Below are positions 5,142-44,998 of a stretch of DNA of 64,000 nucleotides, piece after piece. Every line of letters starts with the position of its first letter. Within the stretch, counting starts at the first letter, position 1. The notes under the pieces are model-generated. The model was not told the origin of the DNA. It worked only from the letters and a program-made list of their open reading frames with translations, and searched no databases. This DNA comes from Chondrosia reniformis (Eukaryota > Porifera > Demospongiae > Chondrillida > Chondrillidae): positions 3,906,001-3,970,000 of the forward strand of contig OX359191.1 of assembly GCA_947172415.1 (NCBI GenBank), given 5' to 3'. The position numbers and the translations under genes are program-made.

Positions 5142-5249
5142 GATTCTCACAAACGCGCAACCGTATCGACAGCTGGAGTGAATGACTTCAAATCCTATCA
5201 TAATATCATTATTACACAATGAAGTGATATAATAATTATATAAACCCAT

Positions 5250-5420: not shown

Positions 5421-7015
5421 TTCATATATACTAGTTATATGTAGTAGGTGTGTGTATTTGTTATATGTAGTAGGTGTGTGTACTTGTTATATGTACTAGT
5501 TGAAAGTACAAGTTGTTTGTCCTAATTGTATGTACACATTCTGTGTACCAGTTGTATGTTGATACTGGTTGTATGTACCTAGTTGTATGTACTAGTTGTA
5601 TGTACTAGTGTTTTGAACTAGTTGTGGGTTCTGGTACAAGTTATACTAAGAACTAGGAAGGAACTCGTTCTCTATGCTACTTGTTTCTTTGTTTGAACTA
5701 GTTTTATCTACTAATTGTATGTACTAGTTGTATGTACTAGTTTTAGGTTCAAGTCCTAGGTACTAGGGAGGGGCTAGTTGTATGTACTAGATTCTAATTG
5801 TATGTACTAGCTGTATGTACTAGTCGCATGCACTAATTATATTTACTTTTTACAAATTTATGATCTAGTTGTTCCTTGTATGTACTAGTTGTATATACTA
5901 GTTGTATATATACACTAGTTGTATGTACTAGTTTCTAGTTGTGTGCAGTATGTGTATGTACTATTCATATATACTAGTTATATGTTTAGGTATTAGTTAT
6001 ATGTAGTAAGGTGTGTGTACTTGTTATATGTACTAGTTGAAGGTACTAGTTGTATATCCTAATTGTATGTACACATTCTGTGTACTAGTTGTATGTTTAT
6101 ACTAGTTGTATGTACTAGCTTTATCTTAGTTGTATGTACTAGTTGTATGTACTAGTTTTTTGAACTAGTTGTAGCTTCTGGTACAAGTTATACTAGGAAC
6201 TAGGAAGGAACTCGTTCTATATACTACTTGTTTGTTTGTTTGAACTAGTTTTTGTACTAAATGTATGTACTAGTTGTAGGTTCAAGTCCTAGTTATATTA
6301 GGTACTAGGGAGGGGCTAGTTGTATGTACTAGATACTAATTGTATGTACTACTTGTATGTACTATTTATATGTATTATTTATATTTTTATGTACTAGGTA
6401 TATGTACTATTTGTATGTACTTGCTGTATGTTCTGGTTGTATGTGCTAATTGTATCTACTATTGTATGTACTAATACTATATAGTTATATTAAATAGTTG
6501 CTGGTGCCACATGTTTGTACAACTTGTATGTGGTAGTTGTAATTAGTAATAATTGTAGGTACTAGTTGCATGTACTAGTTGTATGTACTAGTTGTATGTA
6601 CTAGAAATGAGCCTGTTGTATGTACAAGATGTATCCACTAGTTGTTTGTGCTAGCTGTATACTTGTTTTATGAAGTTATTGTATGTTCTAGTTGTATGTA
6701 CTAGTTGTATGTAATATTCGCATGTACTAGTTATATGTACTAGTTACTAGTTAAGTGAACTAGTTGCATGTACTATTTATAATTACTAGGTATATGTGTA
6801 TGTACTAGTTGTATGTAGTAGGTGTATGTACTAGTTATATGTCCTAGTTGTTTGTACTAGTTGTATGTTCTAGTTGAATGTACTAGTTGCATGTACTAGT
6901 ATTTGTGTGTACTATTAGGATGTATTAGTTTTATGTACTAATTGCATGTACTAGTTGTATGCACTAGTTTTATGAACTAGTTCTATTTATATTTACTAGT
7001 TGTATAAAACTGGTA
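5421..7015 (+). repeat. 13-bp minisatellite array, + orientation, first block
   Basis: Degenerate tandem copies of TAGTTGTATGTAC (13 bp) read on the plus strand. Two longer units are visible: the segment from about 5501 to 5800 recurs at about 6038-6340, with anchors spaced 537-547 bp apart. Each longer unit includes a non-monomer motif (TTCTGGTACAAGTTATACTA then AGGAAGGAACTCGTTCT and TTGTTTGTTTG). The period is not divisible by 3 and CTAG supplies stop codons in every frame, so no coding capacity is expected. The block ends in an orientation switch near 7015. Confidence 0.95.
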
Positions 7016-10000
7016 TCTATATACAACTAGTGCATACATCTAGTATATACAAGTAGTACATAAAATTCGTAGGTACAACTAGTTCATAAAATTAGTAACT
7101 AGTAAATATAATTAGTACATGCGACTAGTACATACAACTAGGACATATAACTAGTAGATAAAACTTCTACATAGAACTAGTACACACACGTATACCTAGT
7201 AAATGTAAGCAGTAAATACATCTAGTACATACAACTAGTACCTACAACTAGTACATACAACTAGTATCTAGTACATACAACTAGAACATACAACTAGTAC
7301 ATAGCTAGTACATACAACTGGTATATATATACAACTAGTACACAGAACTTGTACACACAATTAGCACATGCAACTACTACATACATCTAATACATACAAC
7401 TAGTACCTAAAACTAGTAAATTAAGCTAGTTCTAGTACATACAACTAGTACATACAACTAGTACTTTCAACTAGTACATATAACTAGTACAAACATCTAC
7501 TACATATAACTATTACATAAAAATATAACTAGTTCAAATAAATAGTGCATCCACATAGTACATACAACTAGCACATAAACGTAGTAAATACAACTAGAAA
7601 CTAGTAGATACAATTAGTATATATATAAAATTAGTACATATAACTAGTACATACAACTGGTACATACATACAAGTAGTACATGCAACTAGTACATAAAAT
7701 TAATAGGTACAACTACTTTATACAACTAGTAACTAGTACATATAACTAGTACATGTGACTAGTACATAGAAGTAGTACATATACCTAGTACATACATATA
7801 TATATAGTACATATAAATAGTACGTACAACTAGTATATATAACTAGTACAAACAACTAGTACATTCACCCAGTACATACAAATGTAACGAGTACATACAA
7901 GTAGTACATACAACTAGTACATATAACTAGTACATATAAATAGTACATACAACTAGTACATACAACAATTACACAAAACTGATATATACAACTAGTACAT
8001 ATAACTAGTACATATGACCAGTACATACACATATAATTAGAACATAAATATAGTACATACCACTAATACAGAAAACTAGTTCACACAAACAAACAAGTAG
8101 TTCATAGAACTAGATCATTCCTAGTACCTAGTATAACTTGTACTACAACCTAAAATTAGTTCAAACATCTAGTACATACAACTAGTACATACAATTAGGC
8201 AATAGTACGTATAACTAGTACACACAACTAGTACATACAACTAGTTCATAAAACCAGTACATATAACTAGTACATACAACAATTACCCACTACTTATACA
8301 TTCAACTAGTACAACTAACAACTACATTCGACTAGTACATACAAATAGTATTGCGTACGTACAACTAGTGCATACAACTAGGACAAACACCTAGGACGTA
8401 TAACTAGTACATACATCTACTACATATAACTAATAAATACACATATAACTAGTAATTATGAATAGTACATACAACTAGTACATACAGCTAGTGCACACAA
8501 CTAGCACACAACTAGCACATATAACTAGTACACAAACATATTACCAGTAAATACAAATATAACTGGCACATATAAATAGTACATACAAATAGTTCATACA
8601 ATAACTACATACAACTAATACATGCAACTATAAAATAGTACATATAACTAGTTCATAGAACGAGTACATAATACTAGAACGTACAACTTGTATATACAAC
8701 TAGTGCATAGCTGTTATTTATAACTAGTATATACATACAACTTATACATACAACTGGTATATAACTGGTACATACAACTAGTATATACAAATACAACAAA
8801 CAATTAGTACATACAACTATTACATACAACTTTTACATACAGCTAGTACCTACAACTACTAAATAGAAGTAGGTCTAGTAAATAAAACTAGTCCATGCAA
8901 CTTGTACCTACAACTGGTAAATATAACTAGTACTAGTCCATACAACTAGTACATAAAACTAGTACTTGCAATTAGTACCTATAACTAATACACAATCTAC
9001 CACATATAACTAATACAGAAAAATATAACTAGTACGTATAAATAGTACACACAAGTAGTTCAATCAACTACTAGTACATAGAACGTGTACAAGGACCTAT
9101 AACTAGTAGACACCTACTACATATAATTAGTATATAAATATATAACTAGTACATATGAATAGTGCATCCATATAGTATATATCACTAGCACATTTAACTA
9201 GTTCATACAACTGTTATATACAAACAACTAGTTCATACAACTAGTAATTACAATTAGGTCGTACAACTAGTTCACACAACTATTAACTAGTACATATAAC
9301 TAGTACATTCAACTAGTACATACAACTAGGACAAACAACTAGGATATATAACTAGTACATACACCAACTACATATAACTAGTAAATACACATATACCTTG
9401 TAATTATAAATAGTACACACAACTTGTACATACAGCTAGTGCATACAACTAGTATATATAACTAGTTCACAAATATAACTACTACATACATATAACTGGT
9501 ACTTATAAATAGTACATACACATAGTACATACAAATAGTAGATACAAATAGTACAAACATCTGCTACATATAACTAGCACCTACAACTAGTAAATAAAAA
9601 TAGAACTACTTCATAAACCTTGTGCATACAACTAGTACATGCAATTAGTACACACAACTAGTACATCCTAACCGTACACACAAATAGTACATACAACTAG
9701 TACATACAAGTAGTACAATCACCTAGAACATACAACTAGTACAAACCAACTAGGACATATAACTAGTACATACACCTACTACATACAACTAGTACATACA
9801 CATATACCTAATAATTATAAATAGTACATACAAAGAGTACATAGAACGGGTACATAAAACTAGTACACACAACTAGAAACTAGTCCATACAACTAGTATA
9901 TATATAACACTAGTACATTTTACTAGTACATAAAACTAGGATATACATACAAAGAGTACATACAACTAGTAAATAAAATTAGTAGGTACAACTAGTTCAC

Positions 10001-11213
10001 ACAACTAGTAACTAGTACATATAACTAGTACATACAACTAGTGTCTAGTATATACAACTAGTAACTCCCTAATTCCTGGTATAATTAGGAATAGAACCTA
10101 CAACTAGTATATACTATTAGTAAATACAACTGGTACATGCAACTAGTACATGCAACTAGTACATATAATTAGTACATAAATATAGTACATACAACTAGTA
10201 CAGAAAACTAGTTCACACAAAAAAAACAAGTAGTTCGTAGAACTAGTTCATTCCTAGTACCTAGTATAACTTGTATTAGAACCTAAAACTAGTTCAAACA
10301 TCTTGTACATTCAACTAGTACATACAATTAGGCAATAGTACATACAACTAGTACATACAACTAGTACATCCTAACAGTACATACAAATAGTACATACAAC
10401 TAGTGCATACAACTTGGACATATAACTAGAACAAACACCTACTATATATTACTAATGCATAAAAATGTAACTAGTTCAGTAGTGCATCCACATAGTACAT
10501 ACAACTAGTACATGAAACTAGTAAATACAACTAGAAACTAGTACATACAACTAGTATATATATACAACTAGTACATACAACTAGTACATACAATTAGATC
10601 ATAAAACTAGTATATAGTTGTACCAAGAACTAGTGCATACATCTTTTACATACAACTAGTACATACAAATTGTACATACAACTAGTACATACCAAATAGT
10701 GCACACACCTAACACATACAATTAGTACATACTACAAGTACATTCAACTAGTCCATACAACTAGGACAAACAACTAGGACATATAACTAGTACATACATC
10801 TACTACATATAACTAGTAAATACATATATACCTAGTATTTATGAATAGTACATACAACTAGTACATACAGCTAGTGCATACAATTAGTACATACAACTAG
10901 TACATACAGCTATACACTTGAACATATAACTAGTTCATAGAACAAGTAAATAATACTAGAAAGTACGACTTGTATATACAACTAGTGCATAGCTATTATT
11001 TATAACTGGTATATACTAACAACTAGTATATACAACTGGTACAAAACTAGTACGTACAACTAGTACATGCAACTAGTACATACAACTAGTACATAACAAA
11101 TAATACCCACAACTAGTACATACTATTTAGTACATACAACTAGTACATTCAACTAGTCCATACAACTACGACAAACAGCTAGGACATATAATTAGTACAT
11201 ACACCTACTACAT
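7016..11213 (-). repeat. 13-bp minisatellite array, - orientation (left arm, outer part)
   Basis: The satellite continues as its reverse complement (GTACATACAACTA on the plus strand). The junction TTGTATAAAACTGGTATCT near 7005-7025 is the reverse complement of the junction near 43925-43945. Punctuation motifs of the longer unit occur in reverse complement near 8080-8150 and 10205-10290. No gene is seen. The block is interrupted at 11213/11214 by the Penelope element. Confidence 0.95.
11201..11213. repeat. Left target-site duplication of the Penelope dimer (13 bp)
   Basis: ACACCTACTACAT at 11201-11213 is repeated exactly at 15046-15058, flanking the whole inverted pair. It is satellite sequence, so the unit inserted into the array as a single event. 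Confidence 0.85.
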
Positions 11214-11322
11214 GGAATAAGGATTTCTTCTAACTGCGTCGAACTTATCTTTGTAAAGGTTCATCTTTCGACTTTTAGAGCGTCTAGAGACGCAGTTTTT
11301 TCGATTCTTCTGTCTGCCAAAC

Positions 11323-11348
11323 GTTTCGACCCTGGGGGTCTTCTTCAG
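11323..11348 (-). ncRNA. Hammerhead-ribozyme-like core, minus-strand Penelope copy
   Basis: On the minus strand the sequence reads CTGAAGA, a short GACCC/GGGTC stem with a CCA loop, then GAAAC. This matches the order of the hammerhead core (CUGANGA, stem II, GAAA). Penelope-like elements are known to carry hammerhead motifs with very short helices in their terminal repeats. Stem III and the cleavage site were not modelled with confidence, so activity is unproven. Confidence 0.5.
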
Positions 11349-11379
11349 TGACTGGTGTTGGTCTTCAAGGTGTCTTCAT

Positions 11380-13629
11380 TTATAGGCATCTTTTCCCGCC
11401 ATTTTCGATTACCTCATCAGTGATGTCATCGGTTACATCATTTCCGGAGGAAGGAGAGGTGAAGGGAGTATTCATAAAAAAGGGTTTCCAACCACTTCTT
11501 AGTACAATTCCTTGATCTAAGTTCATTCTTACCTGACATTGTTGGATCTTCAGGGCTTCCTTAATTCTTCTTCTGTACCAGTTCTCTTCCCTCTCCACCA
11601 CTCTGGCTTGGCTCCACTCAATTGGATGACCAGTTTTTAGGGAGTGACCAGCTAAACCATTGTTCACATCCCCCATCCTGACGGCACGTTTGTGCTCCGC
11701 CATCCTGACTTTTAGTGTTCTTCCAGTTTCTCCAGTGTACACTGCAGGGCAACTAGAACAGGGAATCTGGTAAACGACACCTTTAATATCCATGGTAGGC
11801 TGGGGTTGTTTAGGCCTAGAGAGGATACTCCTCAGTGATCTCTGCTTTGTGAAAATGGTTTCGATGTTCATCTTCCGGCATGTTCTGGAGATCATTTCAC
11901 TGAGGCCTTTCACATATGGAATAAAAAGTTTACGTTTACCATCTTCCCTACTTCCCTGGTTCCGTTGTCTCTTCTTCATGTGCCTAGCAGCAACCTTACT
12001 GGGGTATCCGTTGGCCTGGAGAACCCCTTTCAGGTGCTCTTTTTCCTCTTGGAGGACACTGGATCCAGCACCACAGATCTTCTCCGCTCTGTCCCTGAGG
12101 CAGAGGGCAATGCCAGCTTTCACCCTAGGATGGTGATGAGACGAGAAGTGAAGGTATCTATCCGTGTGGGTTGGTTTTCTGTACACGGATGTACTCAAAC
12201 TTCCTTTGTTCTTCTTCACTAGCACGTCAAGAAACGGGATAGAGCCATCTGTCTCCTCCTCCATGGTGAACTGAATGTTTCCGTGTCTTCCATTAAGGAA
12301 AGACAGAAAATCCTCCAGCTGATCCCTACCTTGGCTCCAGATGACAAAGGTGTCGTCTACATAACGTAGCCAGAGCCTAGGTTTGGAGCCAGCCTCCTGG
12401 AGGGCTTCGTTTTCAAACTCTTCCATGAAGATGTTTGCCACCACTGGAGAGAGAGGAGAGCCCATGGCTGCCCCATCCTTCTGCTCAAAGAACTCGTTAC
12501 CGTACTGGAAGTACGTTGTCCTAAGACAGAGTTCTGTGAGCATTGTGATGGTGGGAGGGTCCAGAGTGGTCCGGTCTGATAGGGTGTTGTCTTCCCTCAG
12601 CCTCCTATCAATGATCTGTAAGGAGAGATCTATAGGTACCTTCGTAAACAAGCTCTTCACATCAAAACTGATTAACTTATCTTCATTCTCTACTTGTAAT
12701 CCCCTGATTTTCTTCACAAAGTCCTCCGAGTTCCTCACAAAGTGAGGAGTGTTCCCCCACAAGGGTGACGGGATAGTCGCCAGATATCTGGATAGGTGGT
12801 AGGTAGGGGAGTTTATAGAGGAAACAATAGGTCTCAAGGGACAACTGGCCTTATGGATCTTTGGGAGTCCATATAACTGGGGGGTCGAGCTCTGTTGGTT
12901 CTGAACCCTCTTCCTCAGATCATTAGGGAGTTTGCCATTCTTTTCCAGTGACCGGAGAACTTCAGTTACCTTCCGTTCTATTTTCAATGTTGGGTTCTTT
13001 TTGATTGGTTGATAGCTCGTATCATCCAAAAGTTCCCTTACTTTGCGGTCGTACTCTTCTTTGTCCAGGAGGACTGTGGCATTTCCCTTGTCTGCTGGAA
13101 GAATGATGGTATCAGAGTTCACCTTGAGCTCCTTGATGGCCGCTGTCTGACGTTTGGTCAGATTAGGGCTCGGGACCCCAGCTTTTGACAGGCATCGTTG
13201 GACTTCACTCCTGAGTTGTTCTCCCTGGTGACCAGGTAAGTAACGAGCTAAGGATTCTGTCCCCGCAATGATGTCAACCTGTGGAATGTGACGAGGAGTT
13301 GGTATAAAATTAAGGCCAAGGGTAAGAACCTGTCTCTGTTGTGGTGTCAACTCCCTCTTAGAAAGGTTGATGATCACTTTTTCTGGGTCAATGGGAGTGA
13401 ACCTGTTGACCTTGATGTTCCTGTCTAACAGAGACTGGAACTTCACCCTATGCCTCTCCTTGGTTTCCTGGAAGGTCCTTTCAGCAATGTTGTCACTCCA
13501 TTCCTTCAGTTTAGAGAAGGATTCCCTGCTGACCAACTTCATTAAGGAAGCTTCACAGGGTTCCAACAGCATTCGGGAGTGATGTAATGTCCTACGATCC
13601 GCGCCAATACCTTCACGTACTAAAGCCAT
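11380..13629 (-). CDS. Penelope-like reverse transcriptase with GIY-YIG endonuclease, 749 aa
   Basis: This intact ORF reads from ATG at 13629. Residues about 1-200 are the basic/helical N-terminal region of Penelope proteins. The reverse transcriptase includes the YGLPKIHK block (about 250), LISFDVKSLFTKVP (motif A, first catalytic Asp, about 320), AAMGSPLSPVVAN (motif B, about 390) and LRYVDDTFVIW (motif C with the Asp pair, about 423). The C-terminal GIY-YIG nuclease includes VYQIPCSSC, VYTGETGRTLKVRMAEHKR (about 625-660) and a downstream REENWYRRRIKEAL with the expected Glu. The enzyme would nick target DNA and reverse-transcribe the element RNA. At about 750 residues it is normal length for the family with all key residues present, so it may be functional. 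Only about 55 bp of its 5' leader remain before the junction with the second copy. Confidence 0.93.
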   Translation of the reverse strand: MALVREGIGADRRTLHHSRMLLEPCEASLMKLVSRESFSKLKEWSDNIAERTFQETKERHRVKFQSLLDRNIKVNRFTPIDPEKVIINLSKRELTPQQRQVLTLGLNFIPTPRHIPQVDIIAGTESLARYLPGHQGEQLRSEVQRCLSKAGVPSPNLTKRQTAAIKELKVNSDTIILPADKGNATVLLDKEEYDRKVRELLDDTSYQPIKKNPTLKIERKVTEVLRSLEKNGKLPNDLRKRVQNQQSSTPQLYGLPKIHKASCPLRPIVSSINSPTYHLSRYLATIPSPLWGNTPHFVRNSEDFVKKIRGLQVENEDKLISFDVKSLFTKVPIDLSLQIIDRRLREDNTLSDRTTLDPPTITMLTELCLRTTYFQYGNEFFEQKDGAAMGSPLSPVVANIFMEEFENEALQEAGSKPRLWLRYVDDTFVIWSQGRDQLEDFLSFLNGRHGNIQFTMEEETDGSIPFLDVLVKKNKGSLSTSVYRKPTHTDRYLHFSSHHHPRVKAGIALCLRDRAEKICGAGSSVLQEEKEHLKGVLQANGYPSKVAARHMKKRQRNQGSREDGKRKLFIPYVKGLSEMISRTCRKMNIETIFTKQRSLRSILSRPKQPQPTMDIKGVVYQIPCSSCPAVYTGETGRTLKVRMAEHKRAVRMGDVNNGLAGHSLKTGHPIEWSQARVVEREENWYRRRIKEALKIQQCQVRMNLDQGIVLRSGWKPFFMNTPFTSPSSGNDVTDDITDEVIENGGKRCL

Positions 13630-13633
13630 TGAC

Positions 13634-14914
13634 GTGCGAAACGCTAGTCGTTTAGCCTTTTCCGTGACGATTGGGAGCCGTATTCAAAGGAGGCTGAGGG
13701 AAGACAACACCCTATCAGACCGGACCACTCTGGACCCTCCCACCATCACAATGCTCACAGAACTCTGTCTTAGGACAACGTACTTCCAGTACGGTAACGA
13801 GTTCTTTGAGCAGAAGGATGGGGCAGCCATGAGCTCTCCTCTCTCTCCAGTGGTGGCAAACATCTTCATGGAAGAGTTTGAAAACGAAGCCCTCCAGGAG
13901 GCTGGCTCCAAACCTAGGCTCTGGCTACGTTATGTAGACGACACCTTTGTCATCTGGAGCCAAGGTAGGGATCAGCTGGAGGATTTTCTGTCTTTCCTTA
14001 ATGGAAGACACGGAAACATTCAGTTCACCATGGAGGAGGAGACAGATGGCTCTATCCCGTTTCTTGACGTGCTAGTGAAGAAGAACAAAGGAAGTTTGAG
14101 TACATCCGTGTACAGAAAACCAACCCACACGGATAGATACCTTCACTTCTCGTCTCATCACCATCCTAGGGTGAAAGCTGGCATTGCCCTCTGCCTCAGG
14201 GACAGAGCGGAGAAGATCTGTGGTGCTGGATCCAGTGTCCTCCAAGAGGAAAAAGAGCACCTGAAAGGGGTTCTCCAGGCCAACGGATACCCCAGTAAGG
14301 TTGCTGCTAGGCACATGAAGAAGAGACAACGGAACCAGGGAAGTAGGGAAGATGGTAAACGTAAACTTTTTATTCCATATGTGAAAGGCCTCAGTGAAAT
14401 GATCTCCAGAACATGCCGGAAGATGAACATCGAAACCATTTTCACAAAGCAGAGATCACTGAGGAGTATCCTCTCTAGGACTAAACAACCCCAGCCTACC
14501 ATGGATATTAAAGGTGTCGTTTACCAGATTCCCTGTTCTAGTTGTCCTGCAGTGTACACTGGAGAAACTGGAAGAACACTAAAAGTCAGGATGGCGGAGC
14601 ACAAACGTGCCGTCAGGATGGGGGATGTGAACAATGGTTTAGCTGTTCACTCCCTAAAAACTGGTCATCCAATTGAGTGGAGCCAAGCCAGAGTGGTGGA
14701 GAGGGAAGAGAACTGGTACAGAAGAAGAATTAAGGAAGCCCTGAAGATCCAACAATGTCAGGTAAGAATGAACTTAGATCAAGGAATTGTACTAAGAAGT
14801 GGTTGGAAACCCTTTTTTATGAATACTCCCTTCACCTCTCCTTCCTCCGGAAATGATGTAACCGATGACATCACTGATGAGGTAATCGAAAATGGCGGGA
14901 AAAGATGCCTATAA
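13634..14914 (+). pseudogene. 5'-truncated second Penelope copy, 426-codon frame
   Basis: From about 13686 this frame is nearly identical to the last ~410 residues of the neighbouring minus-strand copy. The first ~18 codons come from the inverted leader sequence at the junction, so the ATG at 13634 is not the native start. The N-terminal third and RT motif A are missing. Motif B carries Ser for the usual Gly (AMSSPLSP), and further differences are P to T (RPKQ/RTKQ) and G to V before HSLKTGHP. YVDD and the GIY-YIG residues are kept. Without motif A it cannot be an active polymerase; it is the truncated partner of the inverted dimer. Confidence 0.9.
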
Positions 14915-14945
14915 ATGAAGACACCTTGAAGACCAACACCAGTCA

Positions 14946-14971
14946 CTGAAGAAGACCCCCAGGGTCGAAAC
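14946..14971 (+). ncRNA. Hammerhead-ribozyme-like core, plus-strand Penelope copy
   Basis: CTGAAGA, a GACCC-CCA-GGGTC hairpin and GAAAC occur in hammerhead order and are identical to the motif in the minus copy at 11323-11348. The sequence after GAAAC (GTTTGGCAGAC) could form a weak short stem III. Folding was judged by eye only. Confidence 0.5.
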
Positions 14972-15045
14972 GTTTGGCAGACAGAAGAATCGAAAAAACT
15001 GCGTCTCTAGACGCTCTAAAAGTCGAAAGATGAACCTTTACAAAG

Positions 15046-15058
15046 ACACCTACTACAT
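15046..15058. repeat. Right target-site duplication of the Penelope dimer (13 bp)
   Basis: ACACCTACTACAT exactly matches 11201-11213; satellite sequence resumes directly after it. Confidence 0.85.
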
Positions 15059-16485
15059 ATAACTAGTAACTACACATAAATTGTAATTATAAATAGTACA
15101 TACAAATAGTACATAAAACTAGTACATAAGATTAGTTCACACAACTAGAACACACAACTAGAAACTAGTATATACAACTAGCTCACAGAATGAGTACATA
15201 ATACTAGAATGTCCAACTTGTATATTCAACTAGTACATAACCACTACACACAACTAGGAAAAAACAACTAGGACATATAAATGGTACATACACTTTTACC
15301 TAATTATCTTAATTAGTACATACAACTATTACATACAAATAGTACTTGCAATTAGTACATATAACTAGTACACACATCTACCAGGTATAACTAAAACAGA
15401 AATATATAACTATTACATAAACATAGTACATACAAGTAGTTCATGCAACTACTAGTACATAGACCGAGTACATAAAACTAGGACCTATAACTAGTAAACA
15501 CCTACCACATATAATTAGTACATAAGTATATAACTAGAACATATGAATAGTGCATCCATATAGTACATATAACTTGTACATAAAACTAGTGCATTTAACT
15601 AGTTCATACAACTATTATATACAAACAACCAGCCAAAATACATCTAGTATTTACAATTTGGTTGTACAACTACACACAACTATTAACTAGTACATATAAC
15701 CAGTATATGCAACTAGTACAATACGACTGGAACATACAACTAGTTCATACAACTAGTAACAAGTACATATAACTAGTACATTCAACTAGTACATACAACT
15801 AGGACAAACAACTAGGATATATAACTAGAACATCCACCAACTACATATAACTAGTAAATACACATATACCTTGTAATTATAAATAGTACATACAACTAGT
15901 ACATACAGCTAGACCATACAACTAGTCTATATAACTAATTCACAAACATATAACTACTACATACATATAACAGGTACTTATAAATAGTACATACACATAG
16001 TACATACAGATAGTACATACAAATAGTACATACATCTGCTACATTTAACTAGTACCTACAACTAGTAAATAAAAATAGAACTACTTCATAAAACTAGTGC
16101 ATACAACTAGTACATGCAATTAGTACATACAACTAGTACATCCTAACAGTACACACAAACAGAACATACAACTAGTACATACAACTAGTACATTGAACTA
16201 GAACATACAACTAGTACAAACAACTAGGACATATAACTAATACATGCACCTACTACACACAACTAGTAAATACACATATACCTAGTTATTATAAAAAGTA
16301 CATCCAACAAGTACATAGAACGGGTACATAAAACTAGTACATACAACTAGAAACTAGTCCATACAACTAGTATATATATAACACTAGTACATTTAACTAG
16401 TACATAAAACTAGGATATACATACAAAGAGTACATACAACTAGTACATAAAATTAGTAGGTACAACTAGTTCACACAACTAGTCT
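15059..16485 (-). repeat. 13-bp minisatellite array, - orientation (left arm, middle part)
   Basis: Degenerate GTACATACAACTA copies on the plus strand. The last ~100 bp before 16486 match, in reverse complement and with one ~40-bp length difference, the satellite just after 38426, giving one of the anchors of the large inverted duplication. No gene is seen. Confidence 0.95.
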
Positions 16486-17312
16486 ACAAGTAAATAAAAA
16501 CATTTAAAAAATGAAATGAGAAGTAGGGTTGGCAGTCTCTGCAACAGTATCTATCACATCTAGAAAAAGTAACGAAACAAGAAAGTGATCATATGGTAAG
16601 GCTATCATTGCAGAAGTGGCATACTGAAACTTAACTATGCACATCACCACTATGTTTGGGCGCATCATGGATATACTAGAAGTAGGGATCGATGCGCCCA
16701 AACATAGACTGCCATACCTATTTCTCATTTCATTTTTTAAATGTTTTTATTTACTTGTATTCCTTCTTTTTTGTAATGTTATATAATTATTAAAATTAGT
16801 TTTGTAATTTTTTTGGCGAAAACTCGAAATATAACATCGTAGTCGAAGGCAATCAGGAGATGACTAAGAACTCCTAATTGGAAAATGGCGACAAAAGGTT
16901 CCAATTTCCTTACGCGACACAGAAAACCGTCTTTGCACAAATCGTTTGAAGACAGATAGGTAGCTATTCCCTAGTTTCTAAAAATTTTAGACGATATGCC
17001 CCTAAAATGTATTTATCTACAAGCGCATTTATGCACTAGCGTGAAATAAAAGGAAGAATAATAATAATAATAAGAAGAAGAAAATGAGGAAAACCGGAAG
17101 TAGGCCTGAAACCGATTTACAAACTTGGAGTCTTTATGCGCACTTGAAAACAGCTTCCCTCAATTGAAATTGTACAAAAAAGACACATTATGAGTTTAAA
17201 AAAGGTAAAAACGCATTAGCTGCCTACTTATAAAGTGTTAACCCGTAATACATTGAATACGGCATCCATTTTTTGGGCCATCCCTACTAAGAGAGTACTA
17301 CCGTACTCTCTG
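16486..17312. mobile_element. Foldback/MITE insert with 37-bp inverted repeats plus ~550 bp of unique sequence
   Basis: A perfect 37-bp inverted repeat occurs at 16486-16522 and 16722-16758 (starting ACAAGTAAATAAAAACATTT). Inside it lies a second hairpin around ATGTTTGGGCGCATC. Bases 16759-17312 hold non-satellite AT-rich sequence with an (AAT)n run near 17060 and a short palindrome AGAGAGTAC/GTACTCTCT near 17290-17312. No credible protein is encoded. An inverted, internally deleted copy is at 38150-38426 with matching satellite flanks on both sides. The flanks suggest TA at both borders. The family was not recognised. Confidence 0.7.
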
Positions 17313-34775: not shown

Positions 34776-36921
34776 TGGGGCGCCGGAGGCTCCCCTATAT
34801 TATTGTCAAAAATTATGTTAACGTATGGTTTCCTGTTCGTAGTCTTGTATACATATATATATATGTATACAGTACAATTAACAATATACTAAGGTAATCT
34901 AATATAAATAAATAAATAATATAATATAATATAATATAATATAAATAATTCGTATGACTCCAGGAAAGGACCTAGCAACAGAATGGGCATAGTATCATAA
35001 AGTTTAGGCTATAAAAGGATTAATTAAGGGATTTTTTATTTAAGTCTCGGTTTGGTAGAAAACGGAGGACAAAGTCTGTATATAAAATGCCATAGGACTA
35101 TAGAAAACCTATGTGAAATTTATATTGAAACCAAGTGTTATATTAATAAAAATTATCAATTGATCAGATCACTGTGAAACCGATATATATCATGGTACAT
35201 GTGTATGACAAACGTCTGGCGAAGTTTTGCTTAATTAAAATTGCAACACCATCAAGATATAATGAAGAATGCAAGTTTACTATTGTGGAATCTGGTGATG
35301 TATTATGATGTTTCCCTAGTGCGTCACCAACACCTCGTTTGTTGCTCGGTACATATTTAATGGATTATCATGTGACGTTGGGAAAACGTCACGGCTCGTT
35401 GCAAAAGAAGATCATCCTTTCGAGAACGGCTATGACAAGTCGACGCTCTAGTACGAGAAGGAGCTACGGAATAAACGAGTTGTAGCGAAGGTTAGATAAA
35501 GCGTATTTGTGTACGTTTCCGTTAAGTTTGAGGTAGAATTGTCCCTATATTGATGCAAAAGAAATTCGTTTAGTCGACCTTAATAAAACGTTGGTAATTG
35601 AAGCTCTGTCTTCTCTTCTTACGCTTTTTGTTCATATTTTACTTGTCCATATGTAGCCATTCCTTACCAATACCATTTTGTAACTTGTACACAAGGGACA
35701 TCATATACGTATATAAAGGCCTTGGCCTTTTATGTCCCTTGTGTACAAGTTACAAAATGGTCTCTAACCCTGTTGATTATGCCAATGCATGCAACCAACC
35801 GTCGGTGTTCTTAGCTCCCTCACAAGGCAAATCAAATCTGTGTGGCTATTAGCTGAGACCCCTTTAATACTGGAGCCTTTGTTGATATATGGCATGCAGA
35901 TTCATCATCTTCAGTCTATACAAAGGTGTGAAAAGGTAATTGGTAGGCCATGTGTTCTACCTCGCAATTGGATGATCTGTATCAACTACTACTCTCTATG
36001 CAGTAGTTGAGGATTTCAAAACCTGCAACAGTACTAGTGTGACTAAAGTCTTGTGCTGTTTAAAATACTGATTATCCTAGGGGTCACTTGGATCTCTTTA
36101 AATTTGTAACTTGCACTGCATGTGTAGCTAGTACTTGATTGTAATTTTAATATTGTATAGTCACTTGGCCCTCTTAAATTTGTAACTTGTACTGTGTAGT
36201 ATTTGATAGTAATTTTAATATTGCCAGTAACTTTCACTGCGTAGTGTACTTGAGTGTAATTAGCCTCACTATACTTAAGACATTCACTATGAGCAATTTT
36301 GTTATGAGATTCTACTGTACACATGGAAAACATACACACATGGATAAGAATAAAGCCTTGTTGAACATCAGTAACATAAATTTACTAGTTCTGGACGTTT
36401 CAACCCGGAAGTCTTCATCAGTAATACAGGAAAGGGAATATCAAGTAGTAAATTAGTAAATTCGTGTTCCTGAAGCTCAACAAGGCTTTATTCTCATAAT
36501 GATCGCAACAAACACTCCTAATTCCTACACATGGACAAGTTAAAATATGAACAAAAAGCGTAAGAAGAGAAGACAGAGCTTCAATTACGAAAGTTTTATT
36601 ATATATATATATATATATATCTGTCAAAAAATGGCGGACGTTCGGCTAGCTTCCGTTTTCTAGCTTAAAATTAGCTTTCTCTTCCGTAGTGTAGAACATT
36701 GAACGAACGAAATGGACTTAAAAATCACCCTTACTAATACTTTGTAAAGTGAAGCTTGCGAAAAACGTTTTCTACGAGATATGGCCTTGAAAAATTGACG
36801 ACCAACAAGAGTCGATCGGAAATCAGTTAACCGGCTATCTATGGGAACATGCCAAGTAGTTCGAGTTTACTTAGGGGCGCCTGGCGCTCCACGAGTTTTT
36901 AAACTCGAAATACTTGTTTAA
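34776..36921 (+). mobile_element. Unclassified ~2.1-kb insert with GC-rich terminal hairpins, right-arm copy
   Basis: Reverse complement of 18513-20490, including the GGGGCGCCGGAGGCTCCCC foldback at the left end, the ~30-bp-arm palindrome (about 35679-35761), the hairpin with hammerhead-like core (about 36350-36490), the (AT)n run (36599-36621) and the AAACTCG end. It retains about 180 bp near 35830-36010 that the left copy lacks, so it is the more complete copy. ORFs of 73-98 codons inside it overlap the repeats and resemble no known protein. Confidence 0.6.
36393..36421 (-). ncRNA. Hammerhead-ribozyme-like core, right-arm insert copy
   Basis: On the minus strand it reads CTGATGA, short stem, GAAACGTCC, the same as 19012-19040. 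It lies between mirrored AATAAAGCCTTGTTGA arms. Folding was not computed. Confidence 0.5.
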
Positions 36922-38149
36922 TATATTAGTTATGTGTAGTAGGTGCGTGTACTAGTTATATGTACTAGTTGAAAGTACTAGTTGAAAGTACTAGTTGTAT
37001 ATACGTACTAGTTGTATGTACTAGAACTAACTATATTTACTAGTTTTAGGTACTAGTTGGGGGTATTGGTTGTATGTAGTAGTTGCATGTAGTAATTGTA
37101 TGTACAGGTTCTGTGTACTAATTGTATGTATATACTAGTTGCATGTACTAATTGTACGTACTATTTGTATCTACTAGTTGTATTTACTATTTGTATGTTC
37201 TATTTATATGTCTTTGCACTAGTTATATGTACTAGTTGTAGCCCTAGCTGTATGTACTAGTTGTATGTACTATTTACATTTACTAGGTATACTTGTGTGT
37301 ACTAGTTATATGTTCTTGTTGCATGTACCAGTTGCATGCACTAGTTGTATGTACTAGTTGTATGTACTCGTCACATGTACTAATTATATTTACTAGTTAC
37401 TAATTCTATGAACTAGTTTTAACTAAGAATTTTATGTACTACTTGTATGTACTAGTTGTCTGTACTAGTTGTATGTATATACCAGTTGTATGTACTAGTT
37501 AAATCTACTAGTTTTATATGTATACTAGTTGTATGTATTATGTGCATGTACTATTCACATATACTAGTTATATGTTTATGCATTAGTTATATGTGATAGG
37601 TGTGTGTACTTGTTATATGTAGTAGGTGGGTGTACTTGTTATATGTAGTAGGTGTGTGTACTTGTTATATGTACTAGTTGAAAGTACTAGTTGTACCTGC
37701 TAATTGTATGTACACGTTCTGTGTACTAGTTGCATGTTTATACTAGTTATATGTTTATTTTAGTTGTAGGTACTAGCTTTGTACTAGTTGTATGTACTAG
37801 TTGTATGTACTCATTTTTTGAATTAGTTGTAGGTTCTGGTACAAGTTATACTAGGAACTAGGAAGGAAGTCGTTCTCTATACTACTTGTGTTGTTTGTTT
37901 GAACTAGTTTTATGTACTAATTGTATGTACTAGTTGTATGGACTAGTTGTATGTACTTGTTGGATGTACTAATACTAGTTATATTCCTTAGTTGTAGGTG
38001 CTAGTTGTATGTACAAGTTGTGTGTGGTAGTTGTATGTACTAATTTTATGTACTAGTTAGATGTACTAGTTGTATGTACTAGTTGTGTGTACTAGATATG
38101 AACAAGTTGTATGTACAAGATACGGGCACAAGTTTTTTGTAGTAGCTAT
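36922..38149 (+). repeat. 13-bp minisatellite array, + orientation (right arm)
   Basis: Plus-orientation satellite. A longer-unit landmark occurs near 37830-37910 in the same relative place as its reverse complement near 17560-17640. The final ~50 bp match the reverse complement of 17313-17360. No gene is seen. Confidence 0.95.
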
Positions 38150-38426
38150 CAGAGAGTACGGTAGTACTCTCTAAGTAGGGAAGTAGGGACTATGCACATC
38201 ACTTCTATGTTTGGGAGCATCGATCCCTACTTCTAGTATATCCATGATGCGCCCAAACATAGAAGTGATGTGCATAGTTAAGTTTCAGTATGCCACTTCT
38301 GCAATGTTAGCCTTACCATATGATCACTTTCTTGTTTCGTTATTTTTTTTAGATATGATAGATACGGTTGCAGGGACTGCCACCCCTACTTCTCATTTCA
38401 TTTTTAAATGTTTTATTTACTTGTAG
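38150..38426. mobile_element. Internally deleted, inverted copy of the 16.49-kb insert
   Basis: It keeps the AGAGAGTACGGTAGTACTCT palindrome end, the ATGTTTGGGAGCATC/GATGCGCCCAAACAT hairpin and one terminal-repeat end (38391-38426). It lacks the ~550 bp corresponding to 16723-17280. Flanking satellite on both sides mirrors that of 16486-17312. Confidence 0.75.
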
Positions 38427-41400
38427 ACTAGTTGTGTGAACTAGTTGTACCTACTAATTTTATGTACTAGTTAAATGTGCTAGCGTTATATATATACTAG
38501 TTGTATGGACTAGTTTCTAGTTGTATGTACTAGTTTTATGTACCTGTTCTATGTACTAGTTGTATGTACTTTTTATAATAACTAGGTATATGTGTATGTA
38601 CTAGTTGTGTGCAGTAGGTGCATGTATTTGTTATATGTCTTAGTTGTTTGTACTAGTTGTATGTTCTAGTTCAATGTAATAGTTGTATGTTCTAGTTCAA
38701 TATAATAGTTGTATGTACTTGTTGTATGTTCTGTTTGTGTGTACTGTTAGGATGTACTAGTTGTATGTACTAATTGCATGTACTAGTTGTATGCACTAGT
38801 TTTATGAAGTAGTTCTATTTTTATTTACTAGTTGTAGGAGCTAGTTATATGTAGCAGCTGTATGTACTATTTGTATCTACTATTTGTATGTACTATGTGT
38901 ATGTACTATTTATAAGTACCAGTTACATGTATGTAGTAGTTATATGTTTGTGAATTAGTTATATAGACTAGTTGTTTGTCCTAGTTGTATGTACTAGTTG
39001 AATGTACTGGTTATATGTACTTGTTACTAGTTGTATGAACTAGTTGTATGTTCCAGTCGTATGTACTAGTTGCATATACTGGTTATATGTACTAGTTAAT
39101 AGTTGTGTGTAGTTGTACGACCTAATTGTAAATACTAGTTGTATTTTAGCTGGTTGTTTGTATATAATAGTTGTATGAACTAGTTAAATTCACTAGTTTT
39201 ATGTACTAGTTGTATGTACTATATTTATGTGCTAATTATATGTGTATGTACTAGTCATATGTAATAGTTATATGTACTAGTTATATGTACTAGTTGCATG
39301 TACTAGTTGCATGTACTAGTTGTATTTACTAATAGTATATACTAGTTGTAGGTTCTATTCCTAATTATACCAGGAACTAGGGAGTTACTAGTTGTATATA
39401 CTAGACACTAGTTGTATGTACTAGTTATATGTACTAGTTATATGTACTAGTTGTATGTACCAGTTTTGTGTAATTGTTGTATGTACTACTTTTATGTACT
39501 ATTTATATGTACTAGTTGTATATACTAGTTGTATGTACTACTTATATGTACTCGTTACATTTGTATGTACTGGGTGTATGTACTAGTTGTTTGTTCTAGT
39601 TATATAACCTAGTTGTACGTACTATTTGTATGTCCCATATATGTGTGTATGTGCTAGGTATATGTACTACTTGTATGTACTAGCTGTATTAGGTGGTTGT
39701 ATGTACTAATTCTATATACTAGTTGTATGTACTAGGTGTATGTACTAGATATGAACCAGTTGTATGTACAAGATGCATGCACTAGTTCTTAGTACAAGCT
39801 ATTATACTAGTTTTATGAACTAGTTGTATGTACTAGTTGTATGTACTAGTTTAATATACTAGTCACATGTACTGGTTATATATACTAGTTACTAATTGTT
39901 TGAACTAGTTGTAGCTATTAAGTTTATGTACTAGTTGGATGTATATACCAGTTGTATGTACTGGTTAAATGTACTAATTTTATATATATACTAGTTGTAT
40001 GTACTAGTTTCTAGTCGTATTTACTAGTTTCATGTACTAGTTGTATGTACTAGTTTCTAGTCGTATTTACTAGTTTCATGTACTAGTTGTATATACTATG
40101 TGGATGCACTATTTATTTGAATTAGTCACATTTTTATGTATTAGTTAGGTGTTTGTTCTAGTTATATGTCCAAGTTGTATGCACTAGCTGTATGTACTAT
40201 TTGCATGTACTGTTAGGATGTACTAGTTGTATGTACTAGTTGCATGTACTAGTTGCATGTACTAGTTGTATTTACTAATAGTATATACTAGTTGTAGGTT
40301 CTATTCCTAATTATACCAGGAACTAGGGAGTTACTAGTTGTATATACTAGACACTAGTTGTATGTACTAGTTATATGTACTAGTTACTAGTTGTGTGAAC
40401 TAGTTGTACCTACTAATTTTATGTACTAGTTGTATGTACTCTTTGTATGTATATCCTAGTTTTATGTACTAGTAAAATGTACTAGTGTTATATATATACT
40501 AGTTGTATGGACTAGTTTCTAGTTGTGTGTACTAGTTTTATGTACACGTTCTATGTACTAGTTGTATGTACTATTTATAATTACTAGGTATATGTGTATG
40601 TACTAGTTGTATGTAGTAGGTGTATGTACTAGTTATATGTCCTAGTTGGATTGTACTAGTTGTATGTTCTAGGTGATTGTACTAGTTGTATGTACTAGTT
40701 GTATGTACTATTTGTGTGTACTGTTAGGATGTACTAGTTGTATGTACTAATTGCATGTACTAGTTGTGTGCACAAGGTTTATGAAGTAGTTCTATTTTTA
40801 TTTACTAGTTGTAGGTGCTAGTTATATGTAGCAGATGTTTGTACTATTTGTATCTACTATTTGTATGTACTATGTGTCTGTACTATTTATAAGTACCAGT
40901 TATATGTATGTAGTAGTTATATTTGTGAACTAGTTATATATACTAGTTGTATGCACTAGCTGTATGTACAAGTTGTGTGTACTATTTATAATTACAAGGT
41001 ATATGTGTATTTACTAGTTATATGTAGTTGGTGTATGTACTAGTTATATATCCTAGTTGTTTGTCCTAGTTGTATGTACTAGTTGCCTGTACTAGTTATA
41101 TGTACTAGTTAATAGTTGTGTGAACTAGTTTTACGACCTAATTGTAATTACTAGTTGTATGAACTAGTTGTTTGTATATAATAGTTGTATGAACTAATTA
41201 AATGTGCTAGTGATATATACTATATGGATGCACTATTCATATGTACTAGTTATATATTTATATACTAATTATATGTGGTAGGTGTGTGCTAGTTATAGGT
41301 CCTAGTTTTTTGTACTCGTTCTATGTACTAGTAGTTGATTGAACTACTTGTGTATACAATTGATACGTACTAGTTATATTTTTCTGTATTAGTTATATGT

Positions 41401-43935
41401 GGCAGATTGTGTATTAGTTATAGGTACTAATTGCAAGTACTAGTTGTATGTACTAGTTGTATGGACTAGTACTAATTACATTTACCAGTTGTAGGTACTA
41501 GTTGTATATACTAGTTGTATGTATATACTAGTTGTATTTACTAGCTATGTACTGGTTGTATGTTCTAGTTGTATGTACCAGTTGTATGTACAAGTGGTAG
41601 GTTCTTGTACTAGTTATACTAGGTGCTAAAAAGGTACTAGTTGTATGTACTAGTTGTATGTACTATTTATAATTATTAGGTAAAAGTGTATAAACTAGTT
41701 ATATTTAGTATGTGTATGTACTATTTATATGTCCTAGTTGTTTTTCCTAGTTGTGTGTAGTAGTTATGTACTAGTTGAATATACAAGTTGTACGTTCTAA
41801 TATTAATGAGTACATAATATTAGAACGTACAACTTGTATAAGTGTGTGAGCTTGTATAAGTGTAACTTGTATAAGTGTGTGAGCTAGTTGTACAAACTTG
41901 TTTCTTGTTGTATGTACTAGTTGTATGTGCTAGTTTTATATACTAGTTTTTTATACTAGTTATATGCACTATTTATAATTACAAGGTATATGTATTTACT
42001 ACTTATTTGTAGTAGGTGTATGTCCTAGCTGTTTGTCGTAGTTGTATAGACTAGTTGAACGTACTAGTTGTATGTACTAATTGTTTGTGCTAGGTGTGGG
42101 TCCTATTTGGTATATATTAATTGTATGTACTAGTTGCATGGACTAGTTTTATGTACTAGACCTACTTATATTTAGTAGTTGTAGGTACTAGCTGTATGTA
42201 AAAGTTGTATGTAATAGTTGTATGTACTAATTGTATGTACCAGTTATATACCAGTTGTATGTATTAGTTGTATGTATATACTAGTTATAAATAATAGCTA
42301 TGCACTAGTTGTATATACAAGTTGTGCGTTCTAGTATTATGTACTCGTTCTGTGAACCAGTTATATGTACTAGTTTATATTTGTATGTATTAGTTGTATG
42401 TAGTTATTGTATGAACTATATGTATGTACTATTTATATGTGCCAGTTATATGTGTATTTACTGGTTATATGTTTGTGTACTAGTTATATGTACTAGTTGT
42501 ATGTACTATTCATAATTACTAGGTATATGTGTATTTATTAGTTATATGTAGTAGATGTATGTACTAGTTATACGTCCTAGTTGTTTGTCCTAGTTGTATG
42601 AACTAGTTGTACGTACTAAATACTATTTGTATGTACTAGTCGAATGTAGTAGTTATTTGTACTAGTTGAATGTATAAGTAGTGGGTAATTGTTGTATGTA
42701 CTAGTTATATGTACTGGTTTTATGTACTATATGCATGTACTAGTTGTGTGTACTAGTTATACGTACTATTGCCTAATTGTATGTACTAGTTGTATGTACT
42801 AGATGTTTGAACTAATTTTAGGTTCTAATACAAGTTATACTAGGTACTAGGAATGAAATAGTTCTATAAACTACTTGTTTGTTTGTGTGAACTAGTTTTC
42901 TGTACTAGTGGTATGTACTATATTTATGTACTAATTATAAGTGTATGAACTAGTCATATGTACTAGTTATATGTACAAGTTGTATATACCAGTTTTGTGT
43001 AATTGTTGCATGTACTAGTTGTGTGTACTATTTATATGTACTAGTTATATGTACTAGTTGTATGTACTACTTATATGTACTAGTTACATTTGTATGTACT
43101 GGGTGTATGTACTAGTTGTTTGTACTAGTTATATATACTAGTTGTACGTACTATTTATATGTACTATATATATGTTTATGTACTAGGTATATGTACTACT
43201 TTTATGTACTAGTCACAAGTACTAGTTATTTGTACTAGTTACTAGTTGTATGAACTAGTTGTACCTATTAATTTTATGTACTAGTTGCATGTACTACTTG
43301 TATGTATATACCAGTTGTATGTACTAGTTATATGTACTAATTTTATATATATACTTATTGTATCTACTAGTTTCTAGTTGTATTTACTACGTTTATGTGC
43401 TAGTTGTATGTACTACGTGGATGCACTATTTATTTGAACTAGTTATATTTTTATGTAATAGTTATATGTAGTAGATGTTTGTACTAGTTATATGTACTAG
43501 TTGAAAGTACTAGTTGTATGTACTAGTTGTATGTACTAGAACTAGCTTAATTTACTAGTTTTAGGGACTAGTTGTATGTATTAGATGTATGTAGTAGTTG
43601 CATGTGCTAATTGTGTGTACAAGTTCTGTGTACTAGTTGTATATATATACTAGTTGTATGTACTAGCTATGTACAAGTTGTATGTACTAGTTGTAGGTAC
43701 TAGTTGTATGTACTAGATGTATTTACTGTTTACATTTACTAGGTATACGTGTGTGTACTAGTTATATGTAAAAGTCTTATCTACTAGTTATATGTCCTAG
43801 TTGAATGTACTAGTCGCCTGTACTAATTATATTTACTAGTTACTAATTTATGAACTAGTTGTACCTACGAATTTTATGTACTACTTGTATATACTAGATG
43901 TATATACTAGTTGTATGTAGATACCAGTTTTATAC
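38427..43935 (+). repeat. 13-bp minisatellite array, + orientation (right arm, outer part)
   Basis: The longest uninterrupted satellite block in the right arm. It contains a 947-bp-spaced direct duplication (about 39.29 and 40.24 kb), a 23-bp perfect micro-hairpin (41783-41837) and longer-unit landmarks near 42830. The block ends at the orientation switch near 43935, the mirror of the 7015 junction. Short ORFs here are satellite translations, not genes. Confidence 0.95.
41783..41837. repeat. Perfect hairpin, 23-bp arms, 9-base loop
   Basis: Left arm 41783-41805 (ACAAGTTGTACGTTC...) and right arm 41815-41837 are exact reverse complements, separated by ATGAGTACA. It is a small foldback within the satellite, followed by a short tandem ACTTGTATAAGTGTGTGAGC (41832-41886). 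Confidence 0.9.
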
Positions 43936-44998
43936 AACTAGTAAATATAAATAGAACTAGTTCATAAAACTAGTGCATACAACTAGTACATGCAATTAGT
44001 ACATAAAACTAATACATCCTAATAGTACACACAGATAGTACATACAACTAGTACATACAACTAGTACATTCAACTAGAACATACAACTAGTACAAACAAC
44101 TAGGACATATAACTAGTACATACACCTACTACATACAACTAGTTCATACACATTTACCTTGTAATTATAAATAGTATATGCAACTAGTTTACACAACTAG
44201 TAACTAGTATATACAACTAGTACATACAATAACTTCATAAAACAAGTATATAGCTAGCACAAACAATTAGTGCATAAATCTTGTACATACAACAGGCTCA
44301 TTTCTAGTACATACAACTAGTACATGCAACCAGTATATCCAACTAGTACCTACAATTAGTAAATACAACTACCACATACAACTTGTACAAACAAGTAACA
44401 CCAACAAACTATTAAATATAACTATTTAGTATTAGTACATACAACAAGTAGATACAATTAGCACATACAATCAGAACATACAGCTAGTCCATACAAGTAG
44501 TACATATACATAGTACATAAACATATAAATAGTACATATAAATAGTTCATACAACTAGTAAAATTACACAGAATGGGTACATACTACTAGTACATACAAT
44601 TAGTATCTAGTACATACAACTAGCCCCTCCCTAGTACCTAATATAACTAGGACTTGAACCTACAACTAATACATACAACTAGTATATACAATTAATACAA
44701 AAAACTAGTTCAAACAAACAAACAAGTAGTATATAGAACGAGTTCCTTCCTAGTTCCTAGTATAACTTGTACCAGAACCTACAACTAATTCAAAAAACTA
44801 GTACATACAATTAGTATAAACATACAACTAGTACACAGAACGTGTACATACAATTAGCACATACAACTAGTACTTTCAACTAGTGCATATAACAAGTACA
44901 CACACCTACTACATATAACTAGTATATATGAATAGTACATACAACTAGAAACTAGTACATACAACTAGTATATATATAAAACTAGTACATTTAACAAG
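43936..44998 (-). repeat. 13-bp minisatellite array, - orientation (mirror of 5.9-7.0 kb)
   Basis: Reverse-orientation satellite mirroring the first + block: the junction at 43935, and the run from CTAGCCCCTCCCTAGTACCT (about 44620) through the AACAAACAAACAAG and GAACGAGTTCCTTCCTAG landmarks (about 44710-44790), are reverse complements of about 6170-6340. It ends at a switch near 44998, the outer end of the inverted duplication. Confidence 0.9.

What the first reader, a model, noticed from the sequence alone, without database searches (positions are those of the whole stretch)
5421..44998. Giant imperfect inverted duplication (~19-kb arms) built of satellite DNA
Four independent anchors occur in both halves as reverse complements in mirrored order: the orientation switch at 7015/43935, the foldback insert at 16486-17312/38150-38426, the ~2-kb insert at 18513-20490/34776-36921, and the MITE at 23292-23798/32662-33167. 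At each insert the satellite next to it also matches, with private variants, so the inserts predate the duplication. Coordinate sums of paired anchors rise from about 50,950 to 54,900 across the 3.83-kb Penelope insertion, as expected if that element entered one arm later. Such a palindrome could be a real fold-back amplification or an assembly artefact joining two strands or haplotypes.
Basis: partly seen in the sequence, partly recalled or inferred. Interest (0 to 1): 0.85.

Follow-up and report, generated by a model that had tools for sequence, protein, structure and literature searches.

The report
Recurring giant palindromes in sponge satellite DNA
A sponge chromosome carries huge mirror-image repeats inside the satellite DNA of its probable centromere region, and the same mirror unit recurs on several chromosomes, an arrangement that a 2026 paper described as documented only in one genus of beetles.

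Summary
It is neither a lone event nor an assembly join. The genome (matching Chondrosia reniformis odChoReni1.1 by size, sequence count and four contig lengths) holds about 18 such units on chromosomes 2, 3, 4 and 6, with traces on 14. The 40-bp centre junction occurs 17 times, the outer inversion junction 33 times; outer junctions on chromosome 3 alternate in orientation in 19 of 20 neighbouring pairs. On chromosome 3, left arms of different copies group together, apart from right arms, so one fold-back was amplified as a unit. In capped listings the 13-bp satellite marks one central block on each of 13 chromosomes, with thinner evidence for the 14th; none of 131 kinase matches falls inside. 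The closest known kind is Tribolium "macro-dyad symmetry", described in 2026 as documented only in that genus. A centromeric role is inferred, not shown.

The parts
1..5418 (-). Right part of a 7,483-bp CACTA/EnSpm-like DNA transposon (U) inserted in the left (X) arm; starts at C3:3903936, outside the window; ends CAC...GTG, apparent 3-bp target duplication TAT; ORFs 1976-4375 (-)
   Evidence: Pfam PF02992 tnp2 E 4.8e-13; ends and apparent empty sites in units I and J (the empty-site 24-mer occurs 8 times in the 260 kb, two of them right beside the outer junction); the part held of copy F is 99.1-99.6% identical. Superfamily name rests on recalled features
5421..7006 (-). Outer reversed satellite segment of X arm
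   Evidence: orientation map and switches; 5967-7006 pairs with about 43934-44975
7007..26249 (+). X (left) arm: 13-bp satellite with nested inserts
11214..15045 (-). Penelope-like retroelement (family name recalled), not in the other four units fetched; 13-bp target duplication 11201-11213/15046-15058; two inverted parts 99.56% identical
   Evidence: RVT_1 Pfam hit; inverted parts; empty site in copy F at C3:3449901; absence in H, I, J, F
16486..17312 (+). Foldback insert Fb in X arm; the Y arm keeps only a ~209-bp part
18513..20490 (+). 2-kb composite insert T, X arm
20665..21423 (-). Short reversed satellite segment beside T in X arm; recurs in H, I and F with conserved switch junctions
23289..23801 (+). 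MITE M (TA-flanked, ~24-bp imperfect terminal inverted repeats), X arm
26248..26287 (+). Centre inversion junction, the same 40-mer in 17 places genome-wide (11 exact)
26253..28397 (-). Unpaired spacer between the arms
   Evidence: only background-level satellite similarity inside the arm boundary
28398..45017 (-). Y (right) arm, inner part
30480..31970 (-). Non-LTR retroelement fragment (CR1-like, name recalled) in Y arm; at the matching place in H, F, I (partial) and mirrored in J
   Evidence: RVT_1 E 5.4e-33
32662..33167 (-). MITE M, Y arm
34776..36921 (-). T insert, Y arm
38150..38426 (-). Shortened foldback insert, Y arm
43934..44989 (+). Outer reversed satellite segment of Y arm
44981..45009 (-). 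Outer inversion junction (29-mer; 33 places genome-wide with at most 2 mismatches)
   Evidence: C3:3950981-3951009
45018..53468 (-). Outer extension of Y arm, pairing with C3:3894.6-3903.8 kb left of the window and with the left outer arm of unit I

Best explanation
The window holds one copy of a palindromic higher-order repeat of the 13-bp satellite that marks the central, probably (peri)centromeric block of the chromosomes of the sponge Chondrosia reniformis. A satellite segment already carrying the inserts Fb, T and M was duplicated in inverted orientation once, by a fold-back event that left a 2.1-kb unpaired spacer and one private centre junction. The palindrome was then copied as a unit along chromosome 3, in both orientations, and to chromosomes 2, 4 and 6, while arms of one copy exchanged short tracts by gene conversion. 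Shown: mirrored anatomy, recurrence, shared junctions, arm-type grouping on chromosome 3, order of insertions in the five units fetched. Inferred: fold-back replication as the founding step, recombination-based amplification, gene conversion, and heterochromatic or centromeric chromatin as the setting that keeps such arrays.
For: Mirror chain against two controls. Centre 40-mer at 17 places on C2, C3, C4 and C6, 11 exact, reversed-pattern control 0; outer 29-mer at 33 places, control 0. Orientation of outer junctions alternates in 19 of 20 neighbours on C3, binomial p 2e-5. X arms form one clade among chromosome-3 copies (support 0.997); with seven chromosome-3 palindromes the X/Y labelling gives the largest between-minus-within difference of 3,432 labellings (2 reach it, itself and its mirror), with 10 fixed X/Y differences. 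In 13 of 14 units where both were listed, the full-length Fb lies on the side that the centre junction predicts. Ordered insertions in the five units fetched: CR1-like in Y arm of all five, U in W and F only, PLE in W only. Within-unit X-Y divergence 2.39% against 2.71% between units, 2 of 5,040 pairings as low, the observed one included; arm-type differences are patchy, 0 of 1,775 columns in 18.2-20.0 kb against 21 of 1,538 beside it (bins chosen after seeing them). Satellite markers lie in one central block per chromosome in the capped listings, one outlier; 0 of 131 kinase matches inside.
Against: No reads, Hi-C, CENP-A or FISH data could be examined. The four arms of the two chromosome-2 copies group together in the tree instead of splitting by arm type, so homogenisation within a chromosome is a competing force there, although at the 10 diagnostic sites they mostly read X or Y as expected. 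In the unit at C4:3,227,888 the centre junction is forward but the full-length Fb lies on its right, against the usual order. The within-unit effect is small and W and F are sisters, so the permutations are not independent. The founding junction shows no clear microhomology, only satellite background. U, CR1 and PLE were checked in 5 of about 18 units only.
Confidence: 0.78

Rival explanations
1. Assembly artefact: two strands or two haplotypes wrongly joined at the centre.
For: Satellite arrays are error-prone and reads were not available.
Against: Same 40-bp centre junction at 17 places on four chromosomes; arms diverged, with private inserts shared with other copies; no N in the 260 kb around the window; mirrored order repeated in both orientations.
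Confidence: 0.03
2. The symmetry itself is functional: long inverted satellite arrays form hairpin or loop structures that help specify or organise the centromere, as proposed for Tribolium.
For: Inversion sites conserved across copies; both satellite orientations seen on C1-C13 and, through the outer junctions, on C14; central position; some junctions fold better than shuffles (z -5.0 and -5.0 at 7006 and 43934; -2.8, -2.1, -1.5 at three others).
Against: The palindrome centre does not fold better than shuffles (z 0.0); conserved junctions follow from common descent; this unit was found on 5 of 14 chromosomes only; inversion sites give hairpins by construction.
Confidence: 0.15
3. A giant mobile element with ~20-kb terminal inverted repeats that transposes as a unit.
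For: Copies on several chromosomes with constant anatomy.
Against: All 17 centre junctions found genome-wide lie within the central blocks (the block limits on C3 and C4 were partly set by T and Fb hits); outer parts vary between the units read, with no fixed end seen; the coding inserts identified are ordinary transposon families.
Confidence: 0.03

Closest known systems
Macro-dyad symmetries of satellite DNA in Tribolium (T. madens, T. freemani, T. castaneum; PMC13081366, abstract, section list and passages seen)
   Same: Megabase satellite regions in putative (peri)centromeres built of inverted subarrays, palindromes up to 75 kb, conserved inversion sites.
   Different: Different phylum, different (13-bp) satellite, no second intermingled satellite seen, palindromes tagged by transposons so that common origin and order of events can be read; tens of junction copies, not thousands.
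Centromeric inverted repeats of Schizosaccharomyces pombe and Candida tropicalis (recalled)
   Same: Large inverted repeats around a core at a centromere.
   Different: There a repeat pair per centromere flanks a core; here many palindromes, and the spacer is satellite.
Sex-chromosome palindromes with arm-to-arm gene conversion (human Y; recalled)
   Same: Large palindromes with signs of arm-to-arm homogenisation.
   Different: Arms 92% identical in aligned parts, not near-identical; only transposon genes recognised.
Origin-dependent inverted-repeat amplification (PMC4689423, search listing only)
   Same: Interstitial inverted duplication with novel inversion junctions.
   Different: Here an old event, amplified later; no adaptive copy-number effect known.

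Membership tests
Macro-dyad symmetry of satellite DNA (Tribolium type) | Inverted satellite subarrays forming palindromes of kilobases to tens of kilobases | tested here: met
Macro-dyad symmetry of satellite DNA (Tribolium type) | Conserved inversion sites | tested here: met
   17 centre and 33 outer junction copies
Macro-dyad symmetry of satellite DNA (Tribolium type) | Present on all chromosomes in putative (peri)centromeric regions | tested here: inconclusive
   Satellite markers central on C1-C13 in capped listings, C14 by one 901-base piece and two junctions; 0 of 131 kinase matches inside; this palindrome unit itself on 5 of 14; centromere identity untested
Macro-dyad symmetry of satellite DNA (Tribolium type) | Two intermingled satellites, major and minor | tested here: inconclusive
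   Only the 13-bp family recognised; no second satellite was looked for systematically
Functional centromere | CENP-A/CenH3 chromatin | not testable with these tools
   No chromatin data
Assembly-artefact palindrome | Near-identical arms, unique junction, no recurrence | tested here: not met
Giant transposon with long terminal inverted repeats | Fixed ends and target duplications in unrelated DNA | tested here: not met
   All 17 centre junctions lie within the central blocks; outer parts of H, W, I and J vary with no fixed end seen; the ends of the other units were not read

The most novel reading that the evidence does not exclude
Macro-dyad symmetry is a general, convergent design principle of animal (peri)centromeres: a sponge keeps alternating inverted satellite arms on all chromosomes because the symmetry, not the sequence, helps organise centromeric chromatin.
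Probability: 0.15. Interest if true: 0.88.

Novelty: new variant of a known kind. Interest (0 to 1): 0.62.

Why it matters
Satellite macro-dyad symmetry was described in 2026 as documented only in Tribolium (PMC13081366). Finding it in a sponge, with transposon insertions that allow the palindromes to be traced to one founding event, makes it testable whether such symmetry is a by-product of recombination in satellite DNA or a recurring feature of centromeres. It also gives candidate centromere regions for the chromosomes of a sponge. My searches of the open paper library gave no paper whose listing is about sponge centromeric satellites (none; four papers each, listings only, not read).

Tried and rejected
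Rfam and tRNA scans of the window found nothing. A sensitive all-by-all blastn timed out and was replaced by chained alignments with controls. Autocorrelation in four stretches found multiples of 13 bp and only weak peaks elsewhere (near 660 and 1,976 bases). Assembly artefact and giant-transposon readings were considered and set aside (see rivals). A hairpin at the palindrome centre was tested and not found (z 0.0). Literature: searches for sponge centromeres or satellites returned nothing or four papers each, seen as listings only; a six-term search on pericentromeric palindromes returned none; of eight papers on centromere dyad symmetry only PMC13081366 was opened, and of four none, so earlier reports of inverted satellite arrays elsewhere may exist. 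The C14 block was checked only through one 901-base piece (36 reverse units, 0 forward; fetched, counted), T and Fb hits and two outer-junction copies.

Rows dropped or capped: one search shows 60 of 2,486 hits; one search keeps identity over 90% and length over 200, and shows 80 of 167; one search keeps hits of 150 bp or more; chains only HSPs of 60 bp or more; searches with M, T and Fb scored 40 candidates each (of 100, 2,619 and 1,454), and the T listing was cut; the kinase search scored 126 of 1,147 candidates. The tree uses 20 arms of 10 palindromes (those of C4, C6, C14 and of units B and G were not fetched; J's right arm has M only, H's X arm has a partly deleted T); one search uses 7 of those 10. 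Satellite listings were cut at 100 rows by the tool (of 5,383 and 126), so block limits are minimal; some limits come from T, Fb and junction hits. An isolated perfect array at C3:7.00 Mb was left out of the block of chromosome 3.
Full report
Setting. The window is contig 3, positions 3,906,001-3,970,000, of a 117,379,552-base genome in 15 sequences. Size, sequence count and the contig lengths seen (C3 9,415,654; C2 10,288,994; C6 8,731,016; C14 6,754,398) match the kidney sponge Chondrosia reniformis, odChoReni1.1: 14 chromosomes plus mitochondrion, 117.37 Mb, with 9.42, 10.29, 8.73 and 6.75 Mb for chromosomes 3, 2, 6 and 14 (PMC12181767; outline, section 7 and a term search seen). A figure legend there gives 117,390,217 bp, 10.7 kb more than the genome held here. 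The species is inferred from these numbers. The main text holds no 'centromer' or 'satellite'.

Observation. The four anchors are mirrored as stated. A monotone mirrored chain of 28 pieces between 5421-26253 and 26254-44998 has 12,485 aligned columns at 92.2% identity and 18,015 bits. The same left arm against a neighbouring array of the same orientation gives 8,060 columns at 82.4% and 6,526 bits; against the right arm rotated by 9 kb, which keeps part of the order, 7,835 columns at 90.7% and 10,548 bits. So the signal is well above the background of a repeated 13-bp unit.

Anatomy. The satellite has a 13-bp period (autocorrelation 0.61-0.63 at lag 13 over a base of 0.31). It runs forward in the left (X) arm and reverse in the right (Y) arm, with small reversed segments, one of them (the outer) at mirrored places in both arms. 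The orientation switch is at 26249, but the main arm pairing resumes only at 28398, leaving a 2.1-kb spacer. Beyond it, C3:3,894,601-3,903,801 pairs with C3:3,951,066-3,959,468 at 80-94%; a chain of the same stretches has 7,494 columns at 88.5% and reaches C3:3,963,812. Without insertions the arms are therefore roughly 24-26 kb each.

Recurrence. Searches with M, T and Fb found the same order in many places, in both orientations. The 40-bp centre junction occurs at 17 places (11 exact, 1 with one mismatch, 5 with two) on C2, C3, C4 and C6. The outer 29-bp junction occurs at 33 places (22 exact, 8 with one mismatch, 3 with two) on C2, C3, C4, C6 and C14. The reversed-pattern control gave 0 for both. 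Three of the C4 centres are a tandem triplication at 7.65 kb, giving 15 separate centres; three further units on chromosome 3 (E, G, I) have the anchors without this junction, so I count about 18 units, some of them incomplete in the listings. In 13 of 14 units where both were listed the full-length Fb lies on the side that the centre junction predicts; the exception is C4:3,227,888. Outer junctions on chromosome 3 alternate in orientation in 19 of 20 neighbouring pairs (p 2e-5 for random orientation). In the 260 kb fetched, units H, W (window), I and J follow one another, and neighbours are again mirror-related at their outer parts (best pieces: W right/I left 95%; H right/W left 87-97%; I right/J left 89-94%).

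One origin, then amplification. T and M of 20 arms from 10 palindromes were aligned. On chromosome 3, X arms of different palindromes form one clade (support 0.997). In the seven chromosome-3 palindromes tested, mean divergence is 1.76% X-X, 1.84% Y-Y, 2.39% X-Y within a unit and 2.71% X-Y between units. The true X/Y labelling and its mirror are the only 2 of 3,432 labellings that reach the observed contrast, and 10 sites are fixed between arm types. The four chromosome-2 arms group together instead, although they mostly carry the expected X or Y state at those 10 sites; this speaks for some homogenisation within chromosome 2 and is the main result against a simple arm-type story. In the five units fetched (H, W, I, J, F) the CR1-like insert lies in the Y arm of all five, U only in W and F, the Penelope-like element only in W, with a 13-bp target duplication and an empty site in F. 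The order read from these is: palindrome, CR1-like, spread of units, U, W/F duplication, Penelope-like.

Arm-to-arm exchange. Only 2 of 5,040 possible X-Y pairings, the observed one included, give a mean divergence as low as the observed within-unit value. Arm-type differences between W and F are patchy: 0 of 1,775 columns at 18.2-20.0 kb, 21 of 1,538 in the rest of that segment, and 25 of 875 in the last three full bins around M (the bins were picked after inspection, so Fisher p 1e-7 is post hoc). The stretch 24153-25239 differs by 0.55% between the arms of W but by 1.24% from the same arm of F; in the other two segments tested, W's X arm is nearer to F's X arm in one (0.98 against 2.12%) and about equally far in the other (2.20 against 2.09%). 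I read this as gene conversion; variation in local mutation rate is not excluded.

Chromosomal setting. Long exact satellite runs lie in one central block on each of C1-C13 in the capped listings, apart from one isolated perfect array at C3:7.00 Mb; C14 has satellite at the one piece read (36 reverse units in 901 bases). Both orientations occur on C2-C12, on C1 by joining, on C13 and on C14 by its two outer junctions, which contain a switch. Block centres by marker limits lie at 0.36-0.55 of chromosome length. None of 131 protein-kinase matches (126 of 1,147 candidates scored) falls in the blocks, which are 11% of the genome by marker limits; after joining matches closer than 300 kb, 55 clusters give 6.0 expected and p 0.0017. 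This fits centromeric or pericentromeric heterochromatin. It is not proof.

Folding. Of six 120-base junction pieces, two fold much better than shuffles (z -5.0, -5.0), three moderately (-2.8, -2.1, -1.5) and the palindrome centre not at all (0.0); ten satellite controls range from -1.7 to 0.0. Hairpins at switches are expected by construction, so this says little about function.

Comparison. The nearest known kind is the macro-dyad symmetry of Tribolium satellites, with palindromes up to 75 kb and conserved inversion sites, which its authors call documented exclusively within that genus (PMC13081366; abstract and passages seen). The sponge case shares inverted satellite arms, conserved junctions and central position, and differs in satellite, phylum, lack of a seen second satellite, and transposon tags that point to a single origin. 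Comparisons with yeast centromeres and Y-chromosome palindromes are recalled. Other papers on inverted satellite arrays that my searches listed were not opened, so the claim of rarity rests on that one paper.

Noticed in passing
C4:3,973,194 / 3,980,845 / 3,988,496: The palindrome centre junction is triplicated in tandem with a 7.65-kb period.
   Followed up: no
C4:3,227,888: Centre junction forward but full-length Fb on its right side, the one exception among 14 units to the usual order.
   Followed up: no
C3:7,003,507-7,003,623: A short perfect run of the 13-bp unit far outside the central block, a possible seed array.
   Followed up: no
C3:3,973,918-4,008,358: A second axis at about 3,991 kb between W and I, with a direct repeat of a switch junction 22.4 kb apart.
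   Followed up: partly
window 60202-61626: A 474-aa open frame inside the satellite without any Pfam match at E 0.001.
   Followed up: no
window 24962-25733: Local 247-bp tandem amplification, about 3 copies at 97%, inside the diverged 13-bp array.
   Followed up: no
G000 C14:0.60-1.14 Mb and C9:5.04-5.30 Mb: Large clusters of protein-kinase matches, apparently tandem expansions.
   Followed up: no
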